DNA of 64,000 bases from Golubevia sp. BC0850. Lineage: Eukaryota; Basidiomycota; Exobasidiomycetes; Golubeviales; Golubeviaceae. The stretch spans positions 434,001-498,000 of the forward strand of contig JAAVVG010000013.1 in assembly GCA_012976225.1 (NCBI GenBank), given 5' to 3'. The notes beneath the pieces are model-generated. The model was not told where the DNA came from. It worked only from the letters and a program-made list of their open reading frames with translations, and searched no databases. A program made the translations under genes and the position numbers. Below, one piece after another: positions 15,734 to 64,000 of this stretch; position 1 is the stretch's first letter, and each line of letters starts with the position of its first letter.

Positions 15734-17657
15734 ATGGAAGGAGATAGTAAGTCAATACAAACGGAACATTCAATCAAAGGCACCGATATGGTTCAACATC
15801 AACTCAACTTCCAGCTTCAGAGTTAATCTCCATATCTTCCTCCTTGACTTTGTGACAGGCTCGCCTCCTCCCAGGAAACGAAGCAAGTGGGAACAAGATG
15901 ACGATCAAGCTGAAATAAACGAAGCTGAATTGGAAGCCTCAAGAGCTCGAGCAGCTGCCAAAGCAGCGAAGCAAAGAGCAAAGCAAGCTGCAAGAGACAA
16001 GCAATCCTCAAGTTCTACTGCTACTCCAGAATCTGTCTCTCGAAGAGCTGCTTCCATCGACCTCAACAATACCTCTTCTCCAATCCGATCATCTACTCCT
16101 TCAAGGAGCTCGGATCAGAATCAAGCAGCACAAGCAGCAGATAGTCCAGCTCCAATCCAGAGGAAGAAGCTTCCAGTCCCACCTCGGTCGGCTCATCCTC
16201 CGATCACTGGGTGTCGAAGCGTTTATGAGTATGAAAGGTTGAATCATATTGAAGAGGGATCTTACGGAGTAGTCTTTAGAGCTAGGGAGAAGACTACTGG
16301 TGAAATTGTAGCTCTGAAGAAGTTGAAGATGGACAAGGAGAAGAATGGATTCCCAATTACTAGTTTGAGAGAGATTAGGACATTGATGGAAGCTAGGCAT
16401 CCTAATGTGGTGCAGGTGAAGGAAATCGTGGTCGGTGATACTTTGACTCAGTGAGTAGCTATGAGATTAGGATGGAGGGACAAAGTGAAGATAGAAGGTG
16501 CACCTTCTCGAAGCTCAAGGTCGGCCCAGCTGAGGTGAAGGATTGTGTTCTGATAAAGTGTTGTTTCAATCAACAGAATTTTCATAGTCATGGAATTTGT
16601 GGAGCACGATCTCAAGACGCTTCTCTCGAATATGAGGACGCCTTTCCTCCAATCTGAAATCAAGACTCTAATGCTTCAACTCCTCTCAGCTATGAACCTT
16701 TTACACTCAAATTGGATCGTTCATCGGGATATAAAGACTAGCAATCTCTTGATGAACAACAGAGGAATGATGAAGCTGGCGGATTTCGGGCTGGCTAGGA
16801 TGTTTGGAGATCCTCTCGGAGACATGACTACTTTGGTAGTGACACTGTGGTACCGGTGAGTAAGAACATGAAAGCATCTTGAAGAGTTGTACTTGCGATG
16901 CAGAAAGTTGAAATTCTTTGTGTGAAAGTCATGTCTGACTCAAATCCGCTTTCTTTCGTCCTCTCTCAGAGCTCCAGAGCTTCTCTTAGGTGCCAAGGAA
17001 TACAACACAGCTATTGATATGTGGTCTGTAGGATGTATCTTTGGAGAACTGATCAGCAAGGAACCTATGTTCCCGGGAAAGAACGAAGCCGACGAAATTG
17101 GAAAGGTAAGAGTAGAATGTATGCTACCTAATTTCCTTCCTTTCTCTCAGAAGCTGATCTGATTCTTTTTAACCTTTTCAATCTCACAGATCTTCAAGCT
17201 TTTAGGACAACCAACTGAAGCATCTTGGCGAGGCTTCTCGAGTTTGCCACATGCTCGCTCAATCTCAAAAGTTGCCCAACCATATAGCACGTTGAGACAA
17301 AGGTTTCGATATATTACAGAAGCCGGATTGGATCTTCTCTCAAAGCTTCTGACCTATGATCCTGAACAGAGGATCACAGCCGAGGAAGCTCTGGAGCATC
17401 CTTATTTCACAGAATCTCCAGCTCCAGCTCATCCCGAGTCTTTCGCTAGTTTCCCTTCAGTTGCTGCTGGGGAGAAGAAACATGATTCTCCTGACGCTCC
17501 TCAGAGATTGGCTGATCAAAAGTGAGTGTAGCAAAAGTTGAGGTTGCGAGCTGGAGAGGTCCTTTGATTTGCTCTTGGCTTACTTCTCTTGTCCTGTCCT
17601 TTTCTCTTTCTTTTGTTATTCAGATTGGCCTATCAACTCGAACTGGATCTGGTCTGA
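15734..17657 (+). CDS. CDK11: PITSLRE cyclin-dependent kinase CDK11
   Basis: Six exons: 15734-15746, 15859-16450, 16577-16855, 16970-17105, 17190-17521 and 17624-17657, giving 461 aa. A 13 nt first exon encodes MEGD. A short N-terminal region is basic and Ala/Lys/Gln/Ser-rich ([12 protein letters not shown], then a [14 protein letters not shown] helix). The kinase domain starts near residue 150: glycine loop [12 protein letters not shown], catalytic Lys in VALKKLKM, the diagnostic [13 protein letters not shown] helix, [19 protein letters not shown], and [14 protein letters not shown]. The C-lobe ends near ALEHPYF. CDK11 with cyclin L links transcription and splicing in the nucleus. The N-terminal extension is much shorter than in animals. 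All splice sites are canonical. Confidence 0.93.
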
Positions 17658-18114
17658 AATGATTCTACCTACTTCACGCCCCTCGGCTCAAACACTGTAA
17701 CATCACACAACTCTTCTTCAACCTTGCATTTTCATCTTTGCTCAGCCTTTGTATTTTCGTGTTCTACACCATCTCTTTCCTCTCAGGACTTTCGAGTTTG
17801 CTCACAAGACCGGAACGTCTCTGTGTGATGTATGGAGGAGGTGACGTGCGCTTAGCTAGCTGAAGACCTAGAGCCGACTCTTTACTCTCTCTTCTCTCTC
17901 ACCTCTTTCTTTCCTCAGCCGGCCTGTTGCTTGAGCAAACGTTCAACGTCTTTATTATGATATTATTAAACCTAAATTGACCCCGATGTCTCTTCCTGTT
18001 CCTCCTCGCAGTCATCATCTATCTCACTCTAGTCCTCATTCTTAGTCCTCTATCTCTCGGGGAACGAGCTAAAGAAGCACGAGTCCTCACTACCGATTCA
18101 GCCTCAAGTTCAAG
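17658..18114. other. Intergenic, no gene seen
   Basis: 3' region of CDK11 and upstream region of F-box copy B. CT-rich near 17.9-18.05 kb; no coding frame. Confidence 0.4.
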
Positions 18115-19252
18115 ATGAATGACAACAACAAAGCTCTACTTCCAGAGACACTTCTTTCTACCTTCAAACGTCTAACTCCTCAACAAGTAGTCAAAGTCAG
18201 AGAGGTATGCAAGCAATGGCTAGAACTCGTCAACGAGAACAGAGCCCTTTGGAGGATACTGGAGATCTCAAAAGTTAGAAGTCCGGAGGAGGCTCAGGCC
18301 GTACTGGATCAGTACGACGAGAGGAGCGGATCAACTTTAGAGGCGGTCTCGGTTCGAATGGAGCTGGGAGTCAGGAAACTGGATGGTCCTCAACTCGAAC
18401 CGAATTTCTCTGAAATCGAATCATTGGGAGCGACGATGGAGAAGTCTCTAGCGACGCTTCTCGTGATCTCTCTCGAGCTTCCTTATGGTCAACGCAAACC
18501 GTTTGCAGATTCGGTACTTCTGGAGGCTCCCAATCTCGTGGAGCTCAAGGTGTCAGGCATCCCTGACGACACAGTCTCAGTTCAAGTAAAGACTCGACCA
18601 ACAACTGGAGGTCTCAAAACGCTCTGGATCCCTTCTCTTTGGAATCTGCCGAAGGAACGTCTCACTCTCTTCAAGAACCTCGGTTCTCTCAAGGTCGCAG
18701 ATGGTCGATCTCAATCGGAATGGAGAGAGGTTCTCAGTCACTGCTACTCATCTTCGAAACATCTTAGCCTTGAACTCGATGAGACCAGTGACGATGAACT
18801 GAGTTCACTTCAACCGCTTCAATTCCTGATTCTGGAGATTATGGAATTCAAGTACGGCGAGGTGTTTCCGAGTTGGATGGTCGTCCCTTCAAGCTTGACG
18901 CTCATCACGCTCTACGTCCCTCGAGGATTGCCTCTCTCTCATCTCAGAACTTTCTGTTGATTTGATCGATGTCAACAAGTCCGCGCTGATGAATGTGTGT
19001 CCAAGGCTACCAATCCTTCGCCTACCGTACTTAGTTTCTTTGGAAAGAATTGATCTCAGAGAAATTCTCAAGAGGAGAAGAAACAATGTTGAAGCTGGAT
19101 TGGCGATTGGGGGCATCAAGATGGAATCTCTCAAGAGGGTCTATATCCCGTTTGACAGACTTGACGAGTCAGAGCTAGGCGAAATCAGGAAATTGGTAGA
19201 TCAATTGGTGGACTTGAATCTCGAACCGAAGCGTTGGAAAGTCGAAATCTGA
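18115..19252 (+). pseudogene. F-box/LRR-like protein, copy B, frame broken once
   Basis: The frame opens with MNDNNKALLPETLLSTF and VVKVREVCKQWLELV, an F-box-like N-terminus related to the copies at 4.4, 25.6 and 35.1 kb. It runs 281 codons to a TGA at 18958-18960. The family's C-terminal part follows in the next frame, from about 18.91 kb to the TGA at 19250-19252: ISELSVDLIDVNKS, MESLKRVYIPF, then PKRWKVEI. The change of frame must lie within about 18.90-18.95 kb in a CT-repetitive stretch, and no intron of workable size fits there. Apart from that one lesion the roughly 375-codon reading frame is intact, so this is either a very young pseudogene or a sequence error. Confidence 0.65.
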
Positions 19253-19730
19253 AAAGGATTCCTCTCTTGTAAGTGTTGACTCTAGCGTCTTTGGGGTTTT
19301 ATCACTTTCAATCTGAACCAATCTCTCATTTTCACCTTTCCCTTCTCTCTCCCATCGAAGGCACAAGCCTGCAGGTTCCTTTACCCAATCCGATCAGATA
19401 CCGCAATTCCTTCCATTAGCTTTCAGATTCAAGTGCCTTCTCAATAACTCTGTTCCATCTACCTCTCTAACAGGCTCAGCCTTTGTCTGTCCTTTCTCTT
19501 TCTACCCTTCTTTTTCGTCTTGGCTTTCTGTTCCCCATGATCTGATTGGTGTAGATCCTTCTTATGTCAGCAAAGTAAGCGAAACTATTTGAGTTGCGCG
19601 AGAAGTTGTCTTGGAGAGGTTGAGGTTCGGCGATGTGCCAGTGCCGAAGCAAGAGCTTCCTTCTGAGCTGCGAGCATCTGCCTTTAACTTTAGATCTTGC
19701 TCCTTTCTTCTATCTATCTAAGCTCAGTCT
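19253..19730. other. Intergenic, no gene seen
   Basis: About 480 bp between F-box copy B and the PPR-like gene, both on the plus strand. CT-rich, with no coding signal. Confidence 0.4.
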
Positions 19731-22511
19731 ATGGTTTTACGATGCTTCTCAAGGAGAGGTTTGATTCCATCTCGTAGAATCATCGTTATCAGAGATACGA
19801 GTAGATCTTCCAACGATTTCAAACCAAGCATCTGCAACTTTGGAGGAGAATCAACTTGCAATGGTAAACAACGATCTTCATTCTCGACCAGTTCGTCAAA
19901 TCCAAGTCTGAATTCCAATTCCAATTCCACTTCTAACAAATTGAATTCAGAAGTTGAATCAACTGAAGGTATCAAAATCGGATCATCATCTTCAGAAGAA
20001 GCTTCTTCAACTTCTCAATCTTCCACTTCTTCTCATCCATCTCTCACTCAATTTCAATCTCAATCGACTTCAACTTCTTCTCAGCACCCACTGATATCAA
20101 ACCTGTTACGAGAAATTTATTCAACTCATCAGACGCCATCATCGGATAGAGTTTGGAATTCTTATCTTTTATTAACTACAACGACCGATCAACCAGATGA
20201 TTTAGATATCATCAACCCACTTGGTAGTGCAACTTCTTCAGTTCAATTACCTTTAATCAATCAATTAAAGCTAGAACATCATAAATTGGTTTTGAGAGCT
20301 ATTTCACCAGACGTTGTTGAAGAAAGATGGAGGAAGAAGGAATCTAGTAACAGGAGAAAGTTTGAGAACATAGAGACTGACAGGTTCAACAGTTTAGCCG
20401 GCAATGAGGGAAAACAGAAAGGGAAGAATGGGGATGGGGCTGGAGCTGGAAAGGAAGGAAAAGGGATTGAAGGAGTGATCCCTTCACTTCCAAGAAGAAC
20501 TAGAGGAAATCAGAATCCTTCCTCTTCCTCCTCTTCATCTACTCTCAAATCAAATCAAATTGAAATCTCAAAGTACATGCAAAGAGTTTGGTTCATAATT
20601 TCACAAATGAGGTCTTTCAACAATCATTTAGGAAGAGGAGATCAATCATTCGAAGCAAGAAGTTTCTTTAACAAGGTTCTAATCTCTTCTCCTTCACTTC
20701 AACCTCAACCAGTTCCAGATATCTCCGATTTCAATCACATTCTTTCAAACCTTTCAAAAACTTCTTCTGTTTCAGATATGATTTCCATTTGGACTGAAAT
20801 CATGGATTCAGATCTTAAAGTTACTAGAGCTACTTATCATCATTTGTTGAGATGTCTTTCTAATGATTTACAAGAGAGGATAGAGAGAAATCAACTAGAC
20901 GAATTCAGAGAAAAGATGAAAGGAATGGTGGATAGGAGAGGAGAGGGTAGTTTTAGTAAAAGTTGGTTGAAGAAAAATGATGCTAAAGGTTCAAAGCTAG
21001 ATCCAGAAGGATCAACAACAATTTCAACGTCTAAGTTAGGATCTTCAAGGACGCATTCCCTATTGCAAGATATGTTATCAAGAGGTATTAAGCCGAACAA
21101 CCTCACAATCGACCTGGCTTTAAGAAACCTCAGAATCACTGGAGATCTTCAAGGTATCAATTCTCTCATTACTCAATACTTTGGTATTGATCTAAAGAAT
21201 CCTGATGAATTTAGTCATGTCCTCAATCGAACTAGAGAAGAGAGTAATGAGAAGAAATATCTGAAACCAAGTGTTCATACTCTCAACACGCTATTAATGA
21301 CTTTAGGAGAACAAAGGACTGTAGGAGAAATGATAACTGCTTTTGAAACTATCACTAAACCTTTACCACTTGGTGAAGAAGAGATTAGGAAGTTGAGAGA
21401 TGAATTGGAGGAGAGCGTTAGGAATGAAGGAGGAGGGGAGATCGAGGGGAATCTTTTCAAACTCGATTGGAGCGTTTTCAAAGGTCAGGGGAGTGGGGTT
21501 AAAGACTCACAGTTTCATCAGAATGTAAACAGTCCTGAATTTCAAGCTCCAAGTTCAAAGGAGAAGAAAAGCGGCTACCCTGAAGTCTTCAAATACCGAC
21601 ATCCTTCCTCAATTTCACCAAACACCAAAACTTTTACAATCATGATGAAACATGTTTGTTCTTCCTCTAATCCAATGAAGATTTCAAATTCTTCAAATCC
21701 GATTTCATCTCCAACTTCAAAATCTTCAACAAAGCCTTTTGTCAGTCAACTCTCAGAAATTGAACTTCGAAGAAATGGATCCTATATCACTCTAGCCAAA
21801 TACCTTCTATCTGAAGCTTCATCTCAATATCGTTCTCAAATCTCAAGAACCTCTCATCATCTAGGATTTTCTTTGAAATTCGACTCAAAACCTTCTATTC
21901 GTCAAAGATCAATTCCATTCGGAGTTGCTTATTTCTTACCGCCTACTTTAACAATTACTTGGGAAATGATCAATCCTTTGGTTTCGTTGGCTTTTAATAG
22001 TAGAGCAAAATCTAAGGGTGAAGGATTAGGAAAGGTTGATTATGATCTTTTGAGCTGGATTCAAGGATTCTTACAGAAAGCTCTGAGAGATAGGCAGATT
22101 GAAATTGAAATTTTAGAATCCTCTTCGAACAGATTTTCAACAACGACCTCAAATTCTAACATCGATCAAATCAGACAAAACCTTCTTTTGAAAGATCTTC
22201 GACATCAATTATCTTTAACTTCAAGAACTTATCAACCTCTAGAAATCTTTTTGGAAGATTTGAACATCAGAATCAAGGAATCTAGAATTGAGAAAAAAGT
22301 TAGGATGAAAGGTAGAAGAGATGGGATTAAGGAGAAAGTGGAGAGGAAGGTTGAGATGGAGAGGTTGGAGAAGTTGGAGATTGAGAGGCTGAAAGAAGAA
22401 AAGGAAAGGGAAAGAGAAATCAGGAAGAGGAGAAAAGAAATTGAAGAGAGTGAGAATGAAGAAAGAGTGGAAGAAGTTGAGGGGAATAGGAGAGATGGGT
22501 TGGTGCAGTAG
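19731..22511 (+). CDS. PPR-like, probably mitochondrial RNA-binding protein
   Basis: A single intronless frame of 926 codons. The first 25 residues are Arg-rich and lack acidic residues until after position 20 (LRCFSRRGLIPSRRIIVI), a good mitochondrial presequence. Helical repeats with pentatricopeptide character occur in the middle: DFNHILSNLSKTSSVSDM, TRATYHHLLRCLSND, RTHSLLQDMLSRGIKPN, SVHTLNTLLMTLGEQ and NTKTFTIMMKHVC. The typical pattern of a 35-residue unit ending in ..PN or KP is visible. Ser-rich linkers separate the blocks, and the C-terminus is a highly charged coiled coil. Fungal PPR proteins of this size act on mitochondrial transcripts; the exact target cannot be inferred. No close orthologue is recognised. 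Confidence 0.75.
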   Translation: MVLRCFSRRGLIPSRRIIVIRDTSRSSNDFKPSICNFGGESTCNGKQRSSFSTSSSNPSLNSNSNSTSNKLNSEVESTEGIKIGSSSSEEASSTSQSSTSSHPSLTQFQSQSTSTSSQHPLISNLLREIYSTHQTPSSDRVWNSYLLLTTTTDQPDDLDIINPLGSATSSVQLPLINQLKLEHHKLVLRAISPDVVEERWRKKESSNRRKFENIETDRFNSLAGNEGKQKGKNGDGAGAGKEGKGIEGVIPSLPRRTRGNQNPSSSSSSSTLKSNQIEISKYMQRVWFIISQMRSFNNHLGRGDQSFEARSFFNKVLISSPSLQPQPVPDISDFNHILSNLSKTSSVSDMISIWTEIMDSDLKVTRATYHHLLRCLSNDLQERIERNQLDEFREKMKGMVDRRGEGSFSKSWLKKNDAKGSKLDPEGSTTISTSKLGSSRTHSLLQDMLSRGIKPNNLTIDLALRNLRITGDLQGINSLITQYFGIDLKNPDEFSHVLNRTREESNEKKYLKPSVHTLNTLLMTLGEQRTVGEMITAFETITKPLPLGEEEIRKLRDELEESVRNEGGGEIEGNLFKLDWSVFKGQGSGVKDSQFHQNVNSPEFQAPSSKEKKSGYPEVFKYRHPSSISPNTKTFTIMMKHVCSSSNPMKISNSSNPISSPTSKSSTKPFVSQLSEIELRRNGSYITLAKYLLSEASSQYRSQISRTSHHLGFSLKFDSKPSIRQRSIPFGVAYFLPPTLTITWEMINPLVSLAFNSRAKSKGEGLGKVDYDLLSWIQGFLQKALRDRQIEIEILESSSNRFSTTTSNSNIDQIRQNLLLKDLRHQLSLTSRTYQPLEIFLEDLNIRIKESRIEKKVRMKGRRDGIKEKVERKVEMERLEKLEIERLKEEKEREREIRKRRKEIEESENEERVEEVEGNRRDGLVQ

Positions 22512-25606: not shown

Positions 25607-26756
25607 ATGAACATCAACGATATCTTCCTTTCCGAAAATCTCCTCTCCGCCTTCAAGCTCTTAGACACCAGAGAAGCGGTTAAAGCTAGGGAAGTCTGCA
25701 AGCTATGGTTGGAGCTGGTTAAGGAGAATAGAACTTTCTGGAAAATGCTAGACCATCAGCAAAAGAACGGGAAGTAGAGGAGATTCTTCCCATCGTCCAT
25801 CAATTCGATGAGAAGGGTGGATCTTCTTTGAAGGAGATTTCCATGGTGATCAAGCAGAAAGAATCTCAAGACTTCAACGAGCTAACTGAATCGATTCTCA
25901 AGTCAAGTCAAGCTCTCCAAGCTTTCAACATCGGTATGAGATGTACAAGTTACTCCAGTCGGGCACTTGGAAATTTCATAAAGTTTAAGGATTTGCTACT
26001 TCTAAAGCTTCCTAACTTGGTTGACTTCAGATTTCGTGTTTCCCTTCCTTCATTCAGCTCGGAACAAGCATGGATCTCTTCAAATTCTCTGGATTCCTTC
26101 TTTACAACTACAGCCTCCAGCCTCCAGCCTATCTACACGTCAGCCATCCAATTATCATTCAAACCCTTGCCTCTCTCAAATTAGATGAAGTCATTCATCG
26201 TTCAACTTGTAGGAATCTGCTGTCCTACTGTTCTCACTCGCGCAAGCATCTCTACATCTTCCTTAGACCAGTTGAGGAAGAGATCATGCCACTTGAATTC
26301 CCAAAACTAGAGGTGCTGGAGCTCTTGCTCTTGTGGTCTCTTTCTGAATTTCCCGCCTGGATGTTGGTGCCTTCAACCTTAAGATGCTTAACTTCCTATT
26401 TTACATCAAACTTTCCTTCAGTCAAAGAGCTGTGGTGGGACAGGCCTTTTTTTTAGGGAGGTCTCTCATCTAGATGTCCAAACCTGCAAGTTCTTCGCTC
26501 AAGATTATTCGAAAGTTTTCCTTCAGAGTCACATTCCGGAATTTCTACTTCAGACTCTCTATCAGGTATTCTCAGAGCAAGGAAAGCGAATGTAGGACGT
26601 GGATTAACTGTAGAAGGTGTCAGGATGCAGCCTCTCAAGAAGATAGTCATCCCCTTGAAGAACATCTCTGCCGAAGCGCTGGAAGAATGTAGAGGGTTGG
26701 TGAAAGAGGTCGCGGATTGGGAGTTGGAGCCAAAGTTCTGGGAAGTCGAGATCTGA
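25607..26756 (+). pseudogene. F-box/LRR-like protein, copy C, decayed
   Basis: The start MNINDIFLSENLL and EVCKLWLELVKENRTFW matches copies A and D closely. The frame ends after about 60 codons. The family sequence then resumes in other frames: HQFDEKGGSSLKE and ESILKSSQALQAF near 25.80-25.93 kb, LLLLKLPNLVDFR near 26.0 kb, VSHPIIIQTLASL near 26.13-26.18 kb, FPAWMLVPSTLRCLTS near 26.36-26.4 kb, and the C-terminal tail RMQPLKKIVIPL to PKFWEVEI ending at 26756. At least three or four breaks are needed, so this is a clear pseudogene. It keeps the family's full length and so probably arose by whole-gene duplication. Confidence 0.75.
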
Positions 26757-33152: not shown

Positions 33153-33994
33153 GAAAGTGTTTCAATTCTACCCAAAATTGATTCTCAGCTTTTCGTTTTC
33201 AAGTTCTCGTTCTCGTCTAGGTCCTCATTCACATCGCATACTTCCATTTTCTTCAACTTCACAATTTTTTTTCAATCGATGCAAAATTCTATGCAACACC
33301 AAAAAGAATAAACCAAACACTTTCCCTCCTTTTCTTTCTTTGTCTTGTGAGATTGTAACATTATTCAAACTCTCAAAAATAAATCACTCGTCAGAACAAA
33401 AGGCTCTTCGTCTTGAGCGTGAGGAATCATTGGCTCGAGGGGTACAACAGAGCGGAATAGCACCTCCCCAAAAAGCAGATCTAGAATCATTAATCGAGAA
33501 GGTCACTGGGAGTTGAAAAGCGAACCTGTGATTCATTTGTGAAGGAAGCTAAAGACGGTACATGTTTTCATGTCGACAGAAATCCTTTCTCCTCGATTCC
33601 AACCTTTCTCGATTCCAACCTTTCTCGATTCCAACCTTTCTGACTTCCTCCTTACCCTCCTGCAGAAAGAAGGAACAGAGATTTGATTTTGAATTGAGAG
33701 CTTGGTCTGATTGATTCGAAGGATCGGTGGCCGACTTGAGGAGTTGCGATGCGAAAAAGGGGAAGAGAAGTTGCGCTTGATAGGAACCGACGAGCTTCGA
33801 GACTTGTTCTGAAGGAAGATACGAGCGGCAATTATTGGAGCAGCTGAGCGAGGTTGTTGATAAAGACTTGCATTTGTGACCTGGAAGAAGGACAGTGGAA
33901 AGCATGTCGGTCGAGTCAGCTTAGCTAGCAACTGCCAGCTACTTAGAAGGCGAAACCGATATCCTTTGAAACTCACCAATCAAAAGCCAACTTT
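33153..33994. other. Intergenic, with a 16-bp tandem repeat
   Basis: Convergent spacer between eS28 (+) and F-box copy D (-). A plus-strand frame ending at 33516 has a charged C-terminal stretch (ALRLEREESLARGVQQSG) behind a possible CAG acceptor near 33393. It might be an alternative exon, but nothing supports it. A triple 16-bp repeat lies at 33592-33639. Confidence 0.3.
33592..33639. repeat. Three tandem copies of a 16-bp unit
   Basis: CTCGATTCCAACCTTT repeats three times perfectly, head to tail, in intergenic DNA. Confidence 0.85.
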
Positions 33995-35130
33995 TCAGAC
34001 CTCGACTTCCCAAATCGCTGGCTCTGAGTACCAGTCTACGACCTCTCCGACCATTCCTCTGCATTCTTCCAGCGCCTCGGCAGAGATGCTCTCGAAGGGG
34101 ACGATGAGCTTCTTGAGAGGCTCCATTCTGACACCTTCTACTTCCAGTCCACTTTCCACATTCTGTTTCCTTGCTCTAAGGAGAGCTAAAAGGTGCACTG
34201 CGGACTCTTCCTCGATTTGTGCGCGGAGGACTTGAAGGATTGGACATCTAGATGAGAGATATCTCCAATTAGACAGAACAAGGACCCAGAGCTCTTTCGT
34301 CGAAAGGAAGTCCATAAGATCTATGGACAAAAGTGTTTTAAGGTTGGAGGGACCGCCATCCAGGTTGGAAAATGACAGTCCCACATGATCCTGACCATCC
34401 AGAGCTGCAGGACTTCTAATCTAGCAAATTGAAGCGGAAGAACCTCTTGTCCACGGGCCGGTTGTCTGAGGAAGATGGTGAGATGCTTGAGCGTTTGAGA
34501 ACAGTGAGACAGTAGACATCTGAAAGTTGAATGGGAGTCGCCTTTGCTCATTTGGAGAGAGACGAGGGCTTGAAAGAGAATCGGATGGCTGACGTGGAGA
34601 TGGACTGGAGGCTGTAATTGTAAAGAAGTAACCCAGAGAATTCGAAGAGATCCATGCCTGTTCCGACTTGACTGAACAAGGAGCTGAACCTTGGGGTCAC
34701 CACTCCAAATCCTGAAGTCGACCAAGTTAGGGAGCATTAGAAGCAGTGAATCCTCGAAGATTGTGAGAAATGCACGGGCTTGAAATACGTCGCTTTGCAA
34801 TTTGATCCTGAAGGCTTGGAGAGTTTGACTCGAATTGAGAATCAATCCAGCTAGCTGGTTGAAGTCTTGAGAATCTTCATACTTTTTGACTATCGTAGAA
34901 ACCTCCTCCAAAGTAGATCCACTTTTCTCATCAAAGTGGCTGACGGTAGATTGAGTTCGCTCTAGAGAACGTTCTGATAGCACTAGAATCCTCCAGAAAG
35001 TCTTGTTCTCGTCCACCAACTTCCACCATTGCTTGCAAACTTCTCTAACTTTGACCACCTCTTTAATTTCTAGGCATTTAAAAATTGCAAGAAGAGTCTC
35101 GGAAAGTAGGATGTCGTTGATGCATCTCAT
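33995..35130 (-). pseudogene. F-box/LRR-like protein, copy D, frame broken once
   Basis: Minus-strand start at 35130 (MRCINDILLSETLLAIF; VVKVREVCKQWWKLVDEN), an F-box-like head as in copies A-C. The frame stays open to 34321. The family C-terminus is in the next frame, 34384-33995: SNLKTLLSIDLMDF, RYLSSRCPILQVLRAQ, RMEPLKKLIVPFESI, and PAIWEVEV at the end. Comparison indicates one missing base in the A4 run of the sequence coding PTLK, near 34345-34350. Apart from this the protein would be about 378 aa without introns. It is the F-box copy nearest to the mating-type genes, 1.6 kb from the HD2 stop codon. Confidence 0.7.
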
Positions 35131-36687
35131 ATCTGAAGGTGAGAGATATCGAGAGGAATTGAGGTCTGTTTTTAGGAAACTTTCGATCTAGGGCTTGAGG
35201 TCTGGGGAGGGCGAAGAAGGGGAAACCTCTTGATTCAGTGACAATCTCAGCGGCTTCGTCATGTCAGTTGATTGACTTACTTAGACGCTGGGTGGTAGGA
35301 AGGAATTAGCTAGAAGTCAAGTTTTCGCAACTTGAGTTGTTCGATTTGAAAGCTTTCGAGGTCAGACTTCTCTGCTCCGCACCAAAGTTCTGCCTAGAGA
35401 GTCAAAATTCGTCTATTAGAGCTTGAGCATCCAAGAAACGTCTGCCTGCCCAGGGACCTTCCACATCCCCCGTTCTTCCGCCCACGCCAGTGAAACGCTA
35501 AGAAGGTCTAGTGGTAGAGCCTAGTCCAAAGCAGTGGATTCCTGTATCGAGACTGGGGTTCTGAGGTTCTGAAAGAGAGAGTCCGGGTTTGGGCTGAGAA
35601 ATGGGGAAGCGTTTGGAATCTGTCTCTTTCAGGGTCTTTCAAAAGCAGAAGGAGGGTAGAAATGGTGGCTCAGATCTTACATTTGTATGAAACAGAGATC
35701 TTTATATTCACAGAATCCATTCTCCGAGGCAACATTGTTAATTTCCCCTCCGGCTGACTGGTGTGTGTGTGATTTGAGTGAGGCACCTCTTCCTAACTCC
35801 AGAAGATCTGACTGATGACACTTAGATTTCAGAGACAGTCTTTGAGCTTGCAAGCATTTCTAGAATCAAGATCAAATGATTGTCAAGAGATCCATGGTAT
35901 TCCAACAAGATGAGCTTGAGAGAGAAGAGTGTAGTCGATTAAGCAGATCGAATCCTTTGGAAGAAGATCAAGCTCAAGCTCAAGCTCAAGATCCAAAGAA
36001 AACAAAAGAACTCAGATTCAAAAACAACAGTATCAGAGAAAACAAGAGCAGACCATCAAGATCTATGAAACCAAGAGAGACGGAGAAGAGAACAAAGGGG
36101 CGGCATGAGCAAAGAAGACGAGCGAGATGGTCGAAGGAAACGGAAGGTGGGAAAAAGGTAGCCTTGAGAGAGACCTCGCATGGAGAGAAAGAGAGCAAAA
36201 GTATGTTTGGAGAAATAGAGAGCCAGGACATTCGCCTTGGAGAATGGAGAGGTAGAAGGAGCAGAGCAGAGAGAGCAGAGAATAGAGAATAGAGACTACA
36301 TTGTTGATTTAAGAGGTGAGATATTGTGGATTTGATTTGGAGTAGATAGAGTTGAGGAGTCGAAGAGTTGAGGTAGATATATTTGACAAGAGTTGATGAA
36401 TCGAAGGATCTTTGTGACATTTTTTCTGGGTTTTCGTTCTTATTGATTAACCGTATAGCAGGAAGTGCTGAGATTATTTAGATGAGAAGTTCTAAAGAGA
36501 TCAGTTAGAGAAGTAGATTCTGAGTTGAGGTATAAGAGTCGTGACGACCAGCTGTGAAAAAAGTGGGTGATGGGAATGTACAAGTAGGTGTCAGAACTCC
36601 AATCTCATCTCTTCCCTCTCTGAGAAGACGACAACCATGAACTCACTTTATTTTTCCTTCCATAAATCACTATCCATTTCACTTCTT
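35131..36687. other. Intergenic between F-box copy D and HD2
   Basis: 1.56 kb. A (CAAGCT)n run sits at 35969-35990. A 138-codon plus-strand frame (35876-36292) is Lys/Arg/Glu/Ser-rich low complexity without homology that I recognise, and I do not call it a gene. No RNA gene seen. Confidence 0.35.
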
Positions 36688-39359
36688 CTAAACACAAGCC
36701 ACACTTGCTGAGATTTCTCTGAGTCTTGAATCTTGCTCTATAACCTCTTCGTCACCATCGATTTCCATTTCCATCTCCACTCCCTTTCCGTCAACAGGAA
36801 CCTCATTCCCCTTAGAAATGGGTAGAGAATGATTGCTAGAATTCAAACGACTCTCAAACTCTTCTAAACTCTCTCTAGCCAAATCCCAAGATTCCAAAGT
36901 TCCAAGACCTTGGTTTGAGAAATCGAAAGAGTAGATTTCCGCTGCTGCAACTTCCATCCTCATTCCTTCTCCGTTCCCTGGAGTCTTAGGAGAAGAGCTA
37001 GAAGTGGAGTTCGAAGAACTTTCGGCTAGGTCTTCGATTTCATAATCTAAAAACCTTTCTCCCTTCACATCATCATCCCTTACGAATTGGGTGATCTCAG
37101 GAGTTCTCTCTTCAGTTTTAACCAAGATGCCAGCTAAAGGATTGTTGAACTCAGGATCGGAAAGTTGAGTTGCCATTTGATGGACTGAAATTGGTTGAGG
37201 TTGAATTTGACTTGGAGAAGGTCTGGAAGATGAAGAAGATTGAGATTGGGCGAGAAGTGGGGAAGTTCGAGGTTGTGAAGCTCTTGAAGATCTAACAGGT
37301 AAAGAAGGTGGAGGCATCAAACAACCAAGATTCTCATGTTTTGGAGTTTCTTGACTTTCGCAATTGAAGTTAGAGTTCGAGTTCATTCCGATTCCCAGGC
37401 CAACATTTCCAATTCCAGTTCCAACATTCATGTTGATGTTGTTAGCCTTATTATTATTAAACAACCCACTAACTTCAACCTTCCCAAAATCAAAATCGAA
37501 TCCACCTAAAACACCGACTAAATCATTTGGATCTAAGTTCAAATCATCGAAATCTAAATGAGCTACGTAAGGTTCTGGTTCGCCATGTTCAGGTTCTGAG
37601 AAGATGAATTGAGATGATGTGTCGTTGAATTGAGAAAGAAGAGAGTTGTTGAAGTTGTACTGAGAGAAATTTGATAAATTTGTGTTTTGAGAGTTAATAA
37701 AAGTCGGTGAGTTGTTGAGCTGAGAGTTATTTGGAGAGTTGTTGACCATCGAATCATTGTGTTGAGAATTGAACTGCTCCCCAAATCCATCGTTTCTTCC
37801 CAACAATCGATTCGACATCTCTTGAGTACCAAATCCTCCATGATTCTCAGTCTCAGTTGGAGAACAACTCAAACTTCCATCATCCACAGAGGTTCCAATA
37901 CTAGAATGTCCAGATCCCCATCTACCTTTCCCAATTCTTCCGAAAGAAAGAGAGTCTATTGAAGATTGAGAAGAAGAGCTTGGGGTTCTTTGACCGCCTC
38001 CATATCCATTTCTTCCATAACCGTTCTCCATTTCATTCGGAATGTAATCTGAATCGTCTTGTCCTCTTCTAGTTCTTTGACGTTTTCCTTCTCCACCTCT
38101 TTCATCTGAAACTTGACCCCTCCCACCATCATTTGAAGTAGATCCATTCTTATGTTTGTTGTTGAATGATGTACCAGGGGTAGAATCAGGAGATGGAGAA
38201 GAAGTTGGAGATCTACGTTTTGATGAGTAAGAGGGTTTGCGACATGGAGCTTTTGGAGTTTTGATTTTTCGGTTACGACGGTTTTGGTACTGTGGAGGAG
38301 AAGGTGAAGATGAAGAGGTATGTGATGAGAAAGAGGGCGAGGAAAGAGGGTGGGGGGAGAAGGGCGATCGGAGAGAAGGGTGATGAGAGCGATGAAGAGG
38401 CGATCGGAAGAGGGTGGCGAGGAGAAAGAGGGTGGGGAAAGGAGATTAGTTTGCAATCAAGATCGTAATAATTCCAAATCGAGCGAGGATTTTCATCGAG
38501 AAGATGGGTTTGGAGTCCCAGCGTTTCGAGTCCTACTCGCGCGCTCTGACCCCTAGTTTCCCCTTTGTCCCACGCACCTCCACCCTTGCCCGACCTACTT
38601 TTCCCATCTTCTCGCCCCACTTTCTATTTCGATTCAAACTTCCCCTGATTCGTCTCCTCTATACTCCCTACTCCAATGCAAATCCACTCGCTCTGACCCC
38701 CTGATTCCCCTTTGTCCGACCACCCACTTCCCTTTGTCCCCCTCCCGATCTTCCTTTGTACTCACCCAAATGGTGACCTGCCTAGGCTGCAAACCAGTCA
38801 ATTCGGCCAATCGATTCTTTTCAGCTTGAGAAATGTTTTGAGATTGAGAATAGGCGTATTCTAGGATTGTGACTGCCGTTTTGGAATGACCTGCACCTCC
38901 TGGAGATTCGGATTCTGAGGACGAGGAGGAGGCGTCTGCCTGGAACTGAGCGATTCTTGAATCGATCTTTCTGATTAGAGTTGTTTGAAGCTCATCTAGC
39001 TTGTTAAAGTAGCAGGATTGAAAGGTGCTGGCGAGTTGGTCAAAGATCTCTGAAGATGGTGAAGTGGATAGGATTTGGTTTACTGCTTGTTGATGATGAT
39101 TACTTGCGCTGGAATCCAACTGTTGAGCATGTTCCGTGTAAGCAGAGACTATAAGTCTTATTACTTGAGACGACAGCGAGCGCTCTTTGAGAACAGCTTG
39201 TATCGGAGAGGTCTTTATGGGAGGGATATGTAGAGAACTGGAAGTGGAAATGGTAGGGAGCTGCTCTTGATCGCAGTCTGAGCTCAGATTCTTGATATCA
39301 GATGCGATTGAGATTATAGATTTGAGGATCTTTTGTCTTTCGGAAGTCATGATGGCCAT
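36688..39359 (-). CDS. HD2: HD2 homeodomain mating-type transcription factor (bW-like)
   Basis: Two exons, 39359-38766 and 38289-36688, joined in phase 0, giving 731 aa. The homeodomain spans roughly residues 155-210. Helices 1-2 are in exon 1 (TILEYAYSQSQNISQAEKNRLAELTGL). The recognition helix RQVTIW is interrupted after Trp by a 476 nt intron and continues YQNRRNRKIKT in exon 2. Trp-Tyr-Gln-Asn-Arg-Arg is the typical WFxNRR core with Tyr for Phe. A basic nuclear-targeting patch (GGEGKRQRTRRG) follows, then a long Ser/Asn/Gln-rich, acidic tail likely for activation. The N-terminal ~150 residues would mediate dimerisation. HD2 pairs with HD1 from the opposite mating type to drive the dikaryotic/filamentous programme. 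Divergent HD1 lies 912 bp away. Confidence 0.92.
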
Positions 39360-40271
39360 GGTTTAGAAGAAGAAGAGAAGAGAAGAAGGATGGTTTGGAC
39401 GTCAAGTCAGTATCCAATCGAAGGGGTATTGAATTCAGGGTCGTGTCGGTAGTACGACGCCTGAAGACCCGTTACAGCGAATTGACCGCGTGACTAAACT
39501 GTAACGTCAGTCTGGACGGAACCTGCTATGAGCTCTTCCCTTAGCTTCCTATATGTTAGAATTCCAATCTCAAGTCGATTAGAATTCCTTGTGTTTTCCA
39601 AGGTTTAACAAAGAGGCGGAGATAGGAGGATCCGACGTGCGAGCCTGAAGTCACGAGATCGGCAGCGGACTAGATACAAAGGAAGGAAAGACAAAGACTT
39701 CTTTGTTCTTCATCTATCTTTTACTTTTATTTGCGTCAACTCTGTTTGCTGCTGTCTCATTCAATTCAATCTGACTTCGGTGGATACTCACGAATTGACT
39801 GACTTCAGTCGCAAACAAGGACGTCGGATTTCTGTATAGAAATTTCACGAATCAACCCCAGACAATTCTTCTGATTCGTTCACTATACTCGTTGGATGAC
39901 TATTGGATAAGAAAGAATGAGAGAGGAGAGGAAGAGGAGGACGGGCGCTTGAGGTTAGACCTCCGACTAAGAGAGAAAAGGAAACAAGGATGAAGAAAAG
40001 GGAAACAATAATTGGGGAAAGATACTCTAGCTTTATATATGGTTGTCTTCTACGATTCCGATCTACTTTCCAACTCCTTACATCTAAGCATTCGTGCCTG
40101 TCTCCAGTGTCGACGGGTTGCCTTCGCACGCGTTCTCTCCTTTCCTCTTACTCATCAAGAGGGCCTTTGTCCGACCATGCCTTTGTCTCAGGCGCTCGAA
40201 CCTCGCGCGCTCACCTCTGAATCTCCAATTCGAACTTTCTCTCCTTCTTCCCAAACTTCACCATCAACAAG
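39360..40271. promoter_or_regulatory. Shared promoter of HD2 and HD1
   Basis: 912 bp between the start codons of two divergent mating-type genes. A TATA-like TATATAT is at 40034-40040, about 230 bp upstream of the HD1 ATG. No start codon context or frame suggests another gene here. Confidence 0.6.
40034..40040 (+). promoter_or_regulatory. TATA-like box upstream of HD1
   Basis: TATATAT within CTTTATATATGG, about 230 bp before the HD1 start codon. Confidence 0.4.
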
Positions 40272-42312
40272 ATGTCACTCACTCAACTACTCCAAACATA
40301 CGAACCTCAATTCCTCGACTCCATCTCACTCGACGACCTATCCCACCTAGAACATTCGCTAGCGCAATTCGCAGCCATCATGGAGCTTTTCAAGATGGAG
40401 AAAGCCAATGGGTCTGTCACCCAAGAATGTGGAAATCTTGTCAACAGACTTGCTAGTAGGGTGAAAGTTGTAGCAGCAGCGATGCTAGACATCGAACAAG
40501 CCTCTGCAAAGCTTCATGACGCAACTGACAGTCGTTGCGAGTCATTCTTCAACTCTCAAGGCTCCGCAGCCTTCTCCTCCTCATCAACCACTTCAACTCG
40601 CACTTCCAAACCTCCTTCAACTCCCGATACCTCCTCACAAGAAACTCTCCCAACTCGATATCTCCGAGCTTGGCTACTAGACAACCTAGCCGATCCATTC
40701 CCATCAAGATCAGACAAGGAGGACTTGGTCGATCGAACCAATTTGGAGGAAGGTGGGAAGAATACTTTGATTTATAATCAGGTGAGTAACAACTGAGAAT
40801 CTGGAAATCGAAAGGATAGAAGGAAAAATAGAGAGAAGAGGCGAGAGGCGAGAGGCGAGGGAGGGGAGATCGAACAAAGGAGGGATGAGGGTGGGACAAA
40901 GGGAAGGGGTTCGTGTCACCACCTTTTCTCGTCCCTTCACTTCCTCATCCCATCCCATCCCATCCGCTCGATCTCCATCTTCGTTCATCTCACTAACCAA
41001 AACTTTCCTCTGATCTTCTCCTCAGGTCGTACTTTGGTTCACCAACGCCCGTCGTCGTTCCGGCTGGACTTCCTTCTACCGTCGATTCGCCGCTTCCCAA
41101 AAATCTCGAATGATTGAAATCCTCCAAATCCTCCACGATCATTTCACCTCAAACCCTCCGGCCCTAAATCCTCCAATCTCAGCCTTATCTCTATTCTTCA
41201 TCGACTGGAACCTAGAAACCTCTCAAACCAAAGCAGAGAAACTAGCCAAAGAATGTACCGAGCAATTCGAAGGAATGTTAGATTGGATTCATGAGAAACA
41301 TAGTTTAAGAATCGGAGAATGGATGGAAGGGGTTGAAGTTTTAGCAGATGAAACCAGGGAAAAAGAAAGGAAAGAAAGGAAGAGAAGAGGTAGGATGGTT
41401 AAAGAATGTGAAGGGATGGGAGAGAGAAGAACTCCAAGTACTAGAAGTTCTAATGTTGGAAATAGAAATCATTCAAATTCTACAGCTTCTAATAGATCGA
41501 TTTCAAATCAATCTAATTCAAGTTTGTTCTCTGAAAGTAATAGAACTTATTTTACTGGAAGTTCTAATTATTCCACCTATCCTCAAACTGGAGAAAGGGA
41601 AGATTCTTTAACTCCTCCACCTCCTATTTCTAATTCTACTTCCACTTTAAATCGAATTTCAGGAACTGAGAATGGAGTTTCTAGAAACATTGAACAGAAT
41701 TTTGGTTTTAGACAACCTATTGTACCTTCTCAAATGCCGATTACTGCTCCAAGTCCTTCTGCTTTTATTTACTCGAATACTGGAAGAGGTTATTTTTCTG
41801 GAAATATTCTTAAAATTAGAGATCAAAGAAGAATTTCTCTAACTCCAATTTCAAAGAACGGCCAAACTCCAATTTTTGGAACTTCTCTTGGTCTTCCAAA
41901 TTTAGGTCAACCGAATTTTTCAACTTCTAATCATTTCGAAATTGGAAATGGAAATGGGAATGTTAATGGAGTAAACTACTCAAGTTCTCCAGGATCAGAT
42001 GGAGGTTATTCTTTGGGAGCTTTGAATAGTTTACAGAATTCTCCTGAGGAAGTGGCTGGAAGTCCTATTAACAATGACAACTCTACGGATTTATCTGTGA
42101 ATGTTTTGGGTAAGAGAAGGAGGGTCGATGGAATGGTGATGGAGGTTGAAGGACTGGGAGAAAGAGAAGAAGGAAGAAGGGAAGTGGAAAGAGAAGGAGG
42201 TAGTAACAAGAAACTCAAAACCCAGCAAGACTTTAACTTCCTCAACAGCAATGGGGGTTCACATCAACAACAACCTTTACCTGAAAGATGGGTTCCTTGG
42301 AATGGTCAATAA
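40272..42312 (+). CDS. HD1: HD1 homeodomain mating-type transcription factor (bE-like)
   Basis: Two exons, 40272-40781 and 41026-42312, giving 598 aa. The N-terminal 120 residues (MSLTQLLQTYEPQFLDSISL onward) are helical and form the usual specificity/dimerisation region. The TALE-like homeodomain starts near residue 124 with LPTRYLRAWLLDNLADPFPS and has the recognition helix VVLWFTNARRRSGW right after the intron. A basic segment (KEKERKERKRRGRM) and a long Ser/Asn-rich tail follow, with a C-terminal basic patch (LGKRRRVDG, NKKLKTQQ). HD1 and HD2 from compatible partners heterodimerise and control sexual development. The intron (244 nt) carries GAGAGGC and ATCCC repeats. The 3' end is uncertain: a second candidate exon lies at 42444-42532. 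Confidence 0.93.
40841..40964. repeat. Short tandem repeats in the HD1 intron
   Basis: GCGAGAG-type heptamers at 40841-40860 and ATCCC pentamers at about 40946-40964, both inside the intron splitting the HD1 homeodomain. Confidence 0.7.
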
Positions 42313-42443
42313 GGCCAGAGGTGAGTGTCTCTCACTGTTGAACTTTCTCCTCATCACCCCTCTTTTCTCATCCATTTCTTGAAAGACTGACCTCCTCTTC
42401 CCTCTCTTTCTCTCATCTATCAATCTTCTCTACCTCAATCTAG

Positions 42444-46868: not shown

Positions 46869-47347
46869 CTTTACATCTACTTCTTCAAGAGATTCAGTTG
46901 ATTAGAAAGTCAGCTTTGAAAGAAGCGCACAAAGATCAAGAAAGATCGATCGGGTGAGTTGAGAGGAATGAAGTGCAAAATCCTCCTGATTCGTCCAAGG
47001 TTACTTTGTTGCTTGTCTGCTCTCTTAGTTGCTGAAACCTCTCCAACTTGAACTGAGATTGCTTTCGGAATTTGGATTACTATCTAGTAGAACCCTTGTA
47101 CTGGCACAACGGAAGATCCATTGGGTTTCAATCTCCTTTCCAGCTCATACCCTCCCGTTCGTTCTCTACTTTTCTCGCTCCAAGAAGATGTGAGTATCGG
47201 CATCTGAGTCTTATTCCAGCAGACCAAGTGAAACCTGAAATCTCAACTGGTTCTTTACTACTCACAAATCTGATTCTCTCTCTCTCTCCGTTCTCTCTTC
47301 TTCTCTACTCGCCTCTCAGCTCCTACTCTCCTCTACTCTGCGCAAGC
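46869..47347. other. Intergenic, no gene seen
   Basis: Spacer between the divergent minus-strand gene and F-box copy E. CT-rich near 47.28-47.34 kb. Confidence 0.35.
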
Positions 47348-48636
47348 ATGGTTCAGATGCCAGCAGAGGTACTCATAATGGTATTCAACAAGCTCATCAC
47401 TGTCGAACTAGGTCGTATGCCTTTAGTCTCGAGAGAACGGAATCAAATTCTTTCCGACACCACTTCGCTCTGGAGGAACGTCGAAATCGAAATAGAAATA
47501 AGAAACCACGAAGAGTGGATCAAGATTCTACGAGCAGCTTCAGATCGTTCCAACTACTCCTTGGAATCCATCAAGATCAAGTTTATCTGTGGCGTCCCAA
47601 TCGTCCCAATCGTTCCACTACTGGAGCTCTCTAAGCACTCTCTGAGAAAGTTAGACATCCGTATCGACCGCTACGAATAGATCTTAGGCGATGCCTCCCT
47701 CATACAATTCTTCAGCGCCTTCAATCATATTTTGAGGTTGAATCTAACACCCTTCGAGTTGCCTGAGGTAGAGCCAGCAAGTCCTGGGCTTTCTCTCCTT
47801 GCACTAGACGAATCTCCACAACTGTTAACGGACGAAGATTTGGGATGGCTTTCAAATCTCAAGTTCTTATACTTCGAGTCCATGGATCCCGAAGCACTTC
47901 CCGAGGATCTACTAGCTATCGTGGAAGCGTGTAGGAGCACCCTGGTCGAGCTTAGGATCAACTGCGGGGACGAGGAGAGGACTGATCTAAAACCTATCAA
48001 TCTTCCAAACCCAAGAGTTCTGGAATTCCTTCCTTCTGGTGTGGAAGGCCAGACGATGAGCATTCTGCGGGCACCTGCTTTAAAGGCGCTTCGCGGAGCT
48101 ACTTCGAATTTGCTCTTGTTGCCTTTCATGAACGTGCAAACCCTCAAGCTCAACTGCGCAGTCCTTTACGTAGCTGACGAACACGGTGAAGACAAGAGCT
48201 CCTTCAGTTGGTTCAACGCTACGAATCAACGCTAAGGGAGATCCATTTCGCCCCTTCACTCCACCTCTACCGCAAGCACAAGTACTACTCAATCGATACA
48301 CTTCTTCTTTATCTCAAGATGGATGTCACCAATGGAATCAAGTGCTGCAATCTTTCTCATTTTTACATCGGAATGGATCAAACCTATAGCATGAATTTAC
48401 TAGTGGAAGTGCTATTAAGTCGTCGTCTAGCTTCTACTTTTCGAGCTGCCAATACAGCATGGGAAGACTTCTATTCCTGCTCACGTTTGAGCATCTACCT
48501 TGAAAGGTCTGAGATTGTACAATTCAGAGCTGAAGAAGAGATGGTCTTGTCGCAACGTCCAGAATGGATCAGAGAAGCCGCTGGAAAAGCTGAGGTGAAA
48601 GAATTAGACAAGGAGTTCGAGGAAGTTGGGTGGTGA
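47348..48636 (+). pseudogene. F-box/LRR-like protein, divergent copy E, two breaks
   Basis: Start MVQMPAEVLIMVFNKLI with MPLVSRERNQI and LWRNVEIEI, a typical F-box with the following Trp. A TAG at 47678-47680 interrupts the frame, yet the same frame goes on at once and stays open 184 codons (SLIQFFSAFNHILRLNL, LGWLSNLKFLYFESMD, LLAIVEACRSTLVELRIN), with leucine-rich repeats. It ends at 48235. The sequence continues in another frame from about 48205 to 48636 (VQRYESTLREIHFAP; SRRLASTFRAANTAWEDF). One stop and one frame change in about 430 codons suggest a young pseudogene. It differs in sequence from copies A-D. Confidence 0.6.
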
Positions 48637-62997: not shown

Positions 62998-64000
62998 TTA
63001 AGGAAATCGTTCGATACCAGCTTCTTTCCTACTACTTGGAGTCATGGTTTCGGTTCCGAAGCTGTTTAATCTCCCTCTGCCATTGAGATTTTCGACCGGA
63101 TCCCAAGCATCTCTAACGACATCTTCATCCCATTCAGATTGAGTCATAGTGTGAACGATTGGACCCGCAGAATATGAAGGTCGTGGAACGAAACTTGAAT
63201 CATTGGATCTCAGATTTGGAGAATTGAATTGAGGAGAATGATTTGTAGCTTGAGAGTTCCTGGCACTGAATTCTCCTTTCTTGATCGAGGAACCGGTACC
63301 TCCTGAAGAAGGTCTTTGTTGTGAAACAGTTGGTAAAGCTGTATCTCCAAGTCCGATATCTTTCTCTTCTAGTGAAGGTCCTAAGTGGAAAGCGATACGT
63401 GCCAAAGTGTCTTGATCTAACATTGTTCCATTAGATACCTTCATTCGAATTGAGGTTGGAAGTCTTTCACAGAGGTTCGAAAGATTCATCTGTCGGTATG
63501 AGATCGGGGGAGAAGGGGTCAAGGTAAGCTTCGAATTCGCGAGGGAAGTGATGGGGTGCGAGACTGAGAAGGAGTACTCACGAAAGCTCTGCAAGCCAAG
63601 ATTGCATGGAACAAGCAACTGAAAGTCAGAGCTGATGACCTTAAAGTAGGATTGTCCGAAATGGAACTGAAGACAATAATGGCAACCAAAGTCGGAATCG
63701 CACAGATCGCGCAGTAAACGATTCCATCTCTGACCAAAAGATTGAGAAGGGAACTGCCTGCGTTGTGTCTTAATTGAACTAGCTTATAGGTGACCAATCC
63801 CATGATGAAAAGATCTGTGAAGAGGATTACTGCGAAACAAAAGGGGAAGGGAAAGGAACTCGAATCAGCCTCCGCGTTCACGCTTCTGTTCTCACTTCGA
63901 AAGAAGAAGGTGCACTGACAGGCATAAGCGAGTGGATATCTCCATTGAGGAGTCACATAGGTAATCGAGCAAAAACCTCCATCGTTGGCCACTAGACTTG
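62998..64000 (-). CDS. 7TM fungal membrane protein (DUF6533-like), 5' end beyond window
   Basis: Minus strand, exons 64000(edge)-63920, 63829-63582 and 63489-62998. The visible part has about three or four membrane helices: LILFTDLFIMGLVTYKL, the loop/helix LLVRDGIVYCAICAIPTLVA with IIVFSSI, and ALTFSCLFHAILACRAF. It continues into a basic MNLSNLCERLPTSIRM and a Ser/Pro-rich cytosolic tail of about 150 residues. The spacing around RDGIVY and the ILACRxFxNL end is characteristic of the large basidiomycete DUF6533-type seven-helix family of unknown function. It is not STE3-like. The N-terminal helices lie beyond the edge at 64000. Confidence 0.7.

What the first reader, a model, noticed from the sequence alone, without database searches (positions are those of the whole stretch)
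36688..42312. Complete HD mating-type locus with both homeodomain genes intact
HD2 (-) and HD1 (+) are divergent, with intact frames (731 and 598 aa), clear homeodomain helices, and a 912 bp shared promoter. In basidiomycetes this pair determines the b/HD compatibility type. The N-terminal ~150 aa of each protein should be the variable specificity region. The neighbours (F-box copy D on one side; HD1 tail exon, cupin fragment and a secreted repeat protein on the other) may be linked to the mating region.
Basis: partly seen in the sequence, partly recalled or inferred. Interest (0 to 1): 0.75.

Follow-up and report, generated by a model that had tools for sequence, protein, structure and literature searches.

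The report
Fungal HD mating-type gene pair
This stretch holds the two intact, back-to-back homeodomain genes that basidiomycete fungi use to tell compatible mates apart, an ordinary arrangement except that a short motif known as a pheromone-response switch is unusually concentrated in the introns and shared promoter of both genes.

Summary
HD2 (731 aa, minus strand) and HD1 (598 aa, plus strand) are intact two-exon genes, divergently transcribed, with 912 bp between the start codons. HD2 has a typical homeodomain, HD1 a TALE-type one; HD1's N-terminus matches the family Mating_N weakly, below the curated cut-off. This is a basidiomycete HD (b-type) mating-type locus, a new member of a known kind. 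Simple scans showed no clear pheromone receptor or pheromone gene in the 64 kb. Allele diversity, the decisive test of function, could not be run: no other strain and no genome is held.

Six lie in the introns, all on the gene's sense strand, five of them in arrays of exact 22-nt steps; three lie between the genes and none in exons. I read this as probable pheromone-dependent control from promoter and introns: an inference. A repeat remnant or RNA-level role is not excluded.

The parts
36688..38289 (-). HD2 exon 2: rest of homeodomain helix 3 (YQNRRNRK) and long low-complexity C-terminal region with an acidic stretch near the end (EMEMEIDGDEE)
38290..38765 (-). HD2 intron, 476 nt, GTGAGT...CAG, 5' half purine-rich; four ACAAAGG sites on the sense strand
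38766..39359 (-). HD2 exon 1: N-terminal region (expected specificity region) and first part of the homeodomain
39360..40271 (.). 912-bp shared promoter region between the start codons; three ACAAAGG sites
40272..40781 (+). HD1 exon 1: helical N-terminal region with weak Mating_N match (residues 3-83) and first part of the TALE homeodomain
40782..41025 (+). HD1 intron, 244 nt, GTGAGT...CAG, 5' half purine-rich; two ACAAAGG sites on the sense strand, 22 nt apart
41026..42312 (+). HD1 exon 2: homeodomain helix 3 (WFTNARRRSGW) and low-complexity C-terminal region with basic stretches (KERKERKRRGR, GKRRR)
38709..38759 (-). array of three ACAAAGG at exact 22-nt spacing (38709-38715, 38731-38737, 38753-38759) in the HD2 intron; the one at 38753 begins right after the GTGAGT donor
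38562..38568 (-). fourth ACAAAGG of the HD2 intron, in a stretch (38542-38587) that is 78% identical over 46 nt to 38689-38734
39676..39682 (+). ACAAAGG in the shared promoter
40164..40186 (-). two ACAAAGG in the shared promoter (40164-40170, 40180-40186), the first within TGGTCGGACAAAGG, also present at 38709
40874..40902 (+). two ACAAAGG at exact 22-nt spacing (40874-40880, 40896-40902) in the HD1 intron; the second is a full ACAAAGGGA
42321..42443 (+). probable 3' UTR intron of HD1 (GTGAGT...TAG, 123 nt); the exon after it (42444 on) is out of frame through this donor
   Evidence: sequence reading

Best explanation
It is the HD (b-type) mating-type locus of an unidentified basidiomycete. 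Shown here: two intact, divergent genes for a typical (HD2) and a TALE-type (HD1) homeodomain protein, with ACAAAGG motifs concentrated in the shared promoter and both introns. From established knowledge of this family: the N-terminal regions decide whether HD1 of one mate can pair with HD2 of the other; only a pair from different alleles forms the active complex that switches on the dikaryotic programme. Inferred: pheromone signalling activates an HMG-box factor of the Prf1/Mat2 kind, which binds the ACAAAGG cluster, including helically phased intronic arrays (22 bp is about two DNA turns), and raises HD1 and HD2 transcription together. The confidence given is for the identity of the locus; for the pheromone-response step I would say about 0.45.
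For: Gene structures and frames; homeodomain matches; helical HD1 N-terminus, pLDDT about 64-82 over residues 1-70 in a single-sequence model, and the weak Mating_N match. The published layout is the same (PMC10977897 passages). Motif: 9 of the window's 21 ACAAAGG lie in 1632 bp of HD non-coding DNA and none in the four exons. It ranks first of the 1245 heptamers present there. In a 246-block scan only 2 blocks reached the HD block's best-word score, and both overlap it. In the purine-rich intron halves 6 sense-strand sites were seen against 0.099 expected, 0 of 20000 shuffles; in the promoter 3 against 0.125, 7 of 20000. Exact 22-nt spacing with unalike spacers (mean identity 6.0 of 15, reached by 1522 of 5000 shuffles). 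ACAAAGGGA is the published Prf1 site near smut mating-type genes (PMC4466345 passage; [quoted passage not shown]
Against: No second allele, transcript or mating test was available. The Mating_N match is below its cut-off (17.9 against 21.4 bits at best) and the HD2 N-terminus model is poor (mean pLDDT 48). The nine motif sites are not all independent: 38562 lies in a partial duplicate of the stretch at 38709. Collapsed to four clusters, the Poisson value is 4e-4. A second word, AGGGTGG, is almost as enriched (5 copies, 1 elsewhere, Poisson 1.0e-9), so repeated sequence as such is part of the picture. Only two of the nine are full ACAAAGGGA, and two more lie elsewhere in the window; with one mismatch allowed, the full motif is hardly above chance over the window (34 against 24.6, reached by 4 of 100 shuffles). 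No HMG factor could be looked for, as no genome is held. I noticed the motif by eye before testing it.
Confidence: 0.9

Rival explanations
1. The HD locus is real, but the ACAAAGG arrays are remnants of a degenerate repeat or a by-product of purine-rich intron halves, with no regulatory role.
For: The two introns resemble each other as imperfect inverted repeats (41 nt, 76%) and one stretch of the HD2 intron is duplicated (46 nt, 78%). The 5' intron halves are 76% and 83% purine. AGGGTGG is also strongly enriched in the same DNA.
Against: Shuffles keeping the dinucleotides of the purine-rich halves never gave six sites (0 of 20000). Spacers of the five 22-nt units are no more alike than shuffled ones. 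TRF finds no 22-nt array even at score 30. Of 85 GTGAGT/GTAAGT sites in the window on both strands, five open a stretch of 100 nt with over 70% purine, and of these only the two HD introns carry the motif within 300 nt. None of four other introns, placed heuristically, holds it.
Confidence: 0.35
2. The intronic motifs act in RNA: sense-strand purine/G-rich elements and pairing of the purine-rich 5' half with the pyrimidine-rich 3' half help to splice the introns that interrupt the homeodomain, giving regulated production of full proteins.
For: All six intronic sites are on the gene's sense strand. The HD1 intron folds somewhat better than shuffles (z -2.1, 4 of 200 as good).
Against: The HD2 intron does not stand out (z -0.96, 14 of 100 as good). 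The motif is also enriched between the genes, on both strands.
Confidence: 0.15
3. The pair is an HD locus that no longer sets compatibility, as in a homothallic species or one where a single allele is fixed; it would act only in development.
For: Only one haplotype is seen, and a study of homothallic basidiomycete yeasts works with their HD genes (PMC8545103, start of abstract and passages).
Against: Both genes are intact, which fits but does not prove working compatibility.
Confidence: 0.12

Closest known systems
HD/b locus of cereal rusts (bW-HD1, bE-HD2)
   Same: One HD1 and one HD2 gene, divergent, about 1 kb apart; HD1 of similar size (598 here, ~620 aa there)
   Different: HD2 is 731 aa here against ~374 aa in Puccinia, which argues against a Puccinia source; neighbours and allele number could not be compared
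b locus of Ustilago maydis and other smuts, regulated by Prf1 through pheromone response elements
   Same: Divergent HD pair (recalled for smuts); motif core ACAAAGG of the published element ACAAAGGGA near the genes
   Different: Here six of nine core sites are inside introns, five of them in 22-nt-spaced arrays; two of nine are the full 9-mer; where the smut elements lie relative to b-gene introns was not seen; no Prf1 homologue could be sought
HD1/HD2 loci of red yeasts (Sporobolomyces, Rhodosporidium)
   Same: Divergent HD1/HD2 with variable 5' regions (PMC2916851 passages)

Membership tests
Basidiomycete HD mating-type locus | One typical (HD2) and one TALE-type (HD1) homeodomain gene | tested here: met
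   PF00046 E 7.6e-11 in HD2; PF05920 E 1e-10 in HD1, TALE matches in the PDB
Basidiomycete HD mating-type locus | Genes adjacent, divergently transcribed, short shared promoter | tested here: met
   912 bp between start codons, opposite strands
Basidiomycete HD mating-type locus | Both reading frames intact | tested here: met
   731 and 598 aa after removal of one GT-AG intron each; transcripts not available
Basidiomycete HD mating-type locus | HD1 N-terminus of the mating-type (Mating_N) family | tested here: inconclusive
   PF12731 E 0.03 whole protein, 0.0035 exon 1, 17.9 bits against cut-off 21.4; helical model
Basidiomycete HD mating-type locus | N-termini differ between alleles; two or more haplotypes | not testable with these tools
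   One haplotype, no genome held
Basidiomycete HD mating-type locus | HD1 and HD2 of unlike alleles form the active heterodimer | not testable with these tools
   Needs binding or mating assays
Fused (bipolar) HD plus P/R locus | Pheromone receptor and pheromone genes close to HD | tested here: inconclusive
   11 ORFs with two or more hydrophobic segments and 5 short ORFs with CaaX-like ends were listed, none judged receptor- or pheromone-like by eye. A receptor cut by introns into single-helix exons would be missed, Pfam was run on only part of the ORFs, and linkage beyond the window is open
Prf1/Mat2-type pheromone response element cluster | Enriched ACAAAGGGA-type sites at mating genes | tested here: met
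   Core ACAAAGG 9 copies in 1632 bp, rank 1 of 1245 heptamers; only 2 are full 9-mers, and the one-mismatch 9-mer is not clearly enriched over the window
Prf1/Mat2-type pheromone response element cluster | Bound by an HMG-box factor and pheromone-responsive | not testable with these tools
   No genome, factor or expression data

The most novel reading that the evidence does not exclude
Both HD mating genes carry an intronic pheromone-response enhancer: ACAAAGG cores in helical phase (22 bp), inside the intron that splits the homeodomain, so that one HMG-box factor drives both genes together from promoter and introns, and the regulatory sites travel with the specificity exons as a single unit when alleles recombine.
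Probability: 0.35. Interest if true: 0.55.

Novelty: new member of a known kind. Interest (0 to 1): 0.38.

Why it matters
The locus gives the species a ready mating-type marker and shows that the HD genes of this haplotype are intact. If the intronic arrays are real control elements, they tie pheromone signalling physically to the compatibility genes in a way that can be read from sequence, and give a simple prediction (conserved cores, drifting spacers) to test in other basidiomycete HD loci.

Tried and rejected
Relatives: a viral-contig scan with the 75-aa HD1 homeodomain gave 13 pattern matches and no relative; no own genome. The genome contigs, phage, plasmid and E. coli collections are prokaryotic by their descriptions and were not searched, and metagenome scans were capped at none, so no second allele could be compared. 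Synteny: a paper search for HD locus with RPB2 among neighbours gave nothing usable; rpb2 and cwc25 do not occur in the main text of PMC6730849. Structure: single-sequence models of exon 1 only (spliced proteins were not sent); the HD1 model had no PDB match at E 0.001 (best 1.6), and the HD2 model was too poor to search. Mushroom-type operator GATGN9ACA (recalled): 5 in the window, none between the genes; a made-up control word TGAN9TGA: 126, none between the genes. Intron hairpins: weak. Coding extension of HD1 into the 42444 exon: rejected through the good donor because the frame stops; a weak donor near 42305 (GTCAAT) would join it in frame, which I regard as unlikely (sequence reading). 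Print: no listing named intronic pheromone response elements in HD genes; passages of PMC6747018 and PMC5295586 did not help either. Only listings and passages were seen, many journals are not held, and the supplementary figure of PMC4466345 that maps such elements at smut mating loci was not seen, so intronic sites may already be shown there.
Full report
What is there. The minus-strand gene runs 39359..38766 and 38289..36688 (731 aa) and the plus-strand gene 40272..40781 and 41026..42312 (598 aa); each has one GT-AG intron, 476 and 244 nt, and the start codons are 912 bp apart. HD2 matches the Pfam homeodomain at 7.6e-11 and HD1 the TALE-type Homeobox_KN at 1e-10. In the PDB, HD1's homeodomain is closest to MEIS, PKNOX and TGIF, and HD2's best matches are DUX4 and HOX13 proteins, with yeast MATa1 further down the list. 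Both introns split the homeodomain at or inside the recognition helix (helix numbering recalled).

What the proteins look like. HD1 residues 3-83 match Mating_N weakly (E 0.03 for the whole protein, 0.0035 for exon 1, below the curated cut-off). A single-sequence model of HD1 exon 1 gives helices 3-17, 23-45, 51-96 and 126-138, with middling confidence in the first part and no PDB match at E 0.001. HD2 exon 1 is also modelled as helical, but at mean pLDDT 48. The C-terminal parts are long, low in complexity by eye, and coded with fewer G/C third positions than the first exons. Codon scores gave only weak support: the second-exon ORFs score like RPB2, but RPB2 was in the training set, a few opposite-strand ORFs score nearly as high, and the first-exon ORFs fell under the filter.

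Surroundings. By Pfam the window also holds RPB2 (6308-10550, -), CWC25 (11225-12824, +), protein kinase pieces (15639-17522, +), four F-box matches (4329, 18073, 34324 and 47057), a PPR protein (19722-22508), a glycerol-3-phosphate acyltransferase, Utp11, an M28 peptidase and a Na/Ca exchanger (Pfam was run on part of the ORFs only). A hydropathy scan and a CaaX scan listed 11 and 5 ORFs, none receptor- or pheromone-like by eye. So there is no sign here of a fused HD plus P/R locus, though a receptor cut into short exons, or linkage beyond the window, is open. The source is not named; Puccinia is unlikely, since its HD2 proteins are ~374 aa (PMC5295586, section 20).

The added observation. 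ACAAAGG occurs 21 times in the window against 10.5 expected, reached by 0 of 100 shuffles of the whole window. Nine of the 21 fall in the 1632 bp made of the HD2 intron (4), the shared promoter (3) and the HD1 intron (2); none is in the four exons. It is the first of 1245 heptamers by enrichment there (Poisson 1.6e-10, which treats sites as independent); AGGGTGG comes second at 1.0e-9, and words overlapping ACAAAGG follow. To allow for having noticed it by eye, I asked for the best-enriched heptamer in 246 overlapping blocks of equal length along the window. Only two blocks reach the HD block's score (8.8e-9) and both overlap it; the next best is 8e-7. Local shuffles give 0 of 2000 for the three segments together, 0 of 20000 for the purine-rich intron halves, and 7 of 20000 for the promoter. 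Collapsing neighbours and the duplicate leaves four clusters and a Poisson value of 4e-4. Against: the full 9-mer ACAAAGGGA occurs four times in the window, two of them in the HD introns, and with one mismatch it is hardly above chance over the window (34 against 24.6, reached by 4 of 100 shuffles).

Spacing and strand. In the HD2 intron the sites start at sense offsets 6, 28, 50 and 197, and in the HD1 intron at 92 and 114: three exact steps of 22 nt, and all six on the sense strand. The 15-nt tails of the five 22-spaced units are 6.0 of 15 identical on average against 5.73 after shuffling (1522 of 5000 as high), so this is not a plain tandem repeat. The fourth HD2 site does, however, lie in a partial duplicate of the third (tails 12 of 15). 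For spacings of 15 to 30 nt, leaving out words of one or two letters, the only other heptamer triples at equal steps in the window were 11 at 16 nt; the 6 shown lie in the 16-nt tandem array at 33592. The HD introns are not odd in length: four other introns placed heuristically are 281-435 nt, none with the motif.

Meaning. ACAAAGGGA is the published site of Prf1, found near mating-type genes of smuts (PMC4466345 and PMC3248468, passages). Mat2 plays that part in Cryptococcus, where the element lies upstream of the homeodomain gene SXI1alpha among others (PMC3744442, passages). [quoted passage not shown] Pheromone-driven HD expression is therefore the natural reading. The position inside both introns at helical spacing is the part I have not seen described in the listings; the supplementary map of PMC4466345 was not seen. 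Rivals are a repeat remnant and an RNA-level role; the RNA folding evidence is weak (z -2.1 for HD1, -0.96 for HD2).

Verdict. A standard, intact HD mating-type locus (confidence 0.9 for its identity), with a statistically firm but functionally untested cluster of pheromone-response cores (about 0.45 that it is one). The decisive test of compatibility function, comparison of alleles, could not be run here.

Noticed in passing
38290-38765, 40782-41025: Both HD introns are strongly split in composition: 5' halves 76% and 83% purine, 3' halves 26% and 27%. Three other donor-like sites (32714 +, 50469 -, 10196 -) open similar purine-rich stretches without the motif.
   Followed up: partly
36688-42312: Third-position GC falls from the N-terminal exons (0.44, 0.46) to the C-terminal ones (0.31, 0.27; down to 0.08 in one 60-codon stretch of HD1).
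   Followed up: no
4329-5126, 18073-18957, 34324-35187, 47057-47677: Four F-box-like ORFs spread over 43 kb on both sides of the HD pair; by eye, 25732-26181 looks like a further related piece without a Pfam match at E 0.01.
   Followed up: no
42321-42443: Good GT-AG intron starting 8 nt after the HD1 stop; the next exon could encode an acidic tail (SVESSDMDMDSDEY...) only through a weak alternative donor (and sequence reading).
   Followed up: partly
33592-33641: Perfect 16-bp tandem repeat, 3.1 copies.
   Followed up: no
38709 and 40164 (-): The 14-mer TGGTCGGACAAAGG occurs in both the HD2 intron and the shared promoter, suggesting a longer site or an old duplication.
   Followed up: no
63522-63998 (-): Possible membrane-protein ORF running off the window end, with two hydrophobic segments; no Pfam match at E 0.01.
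   Followed up: no
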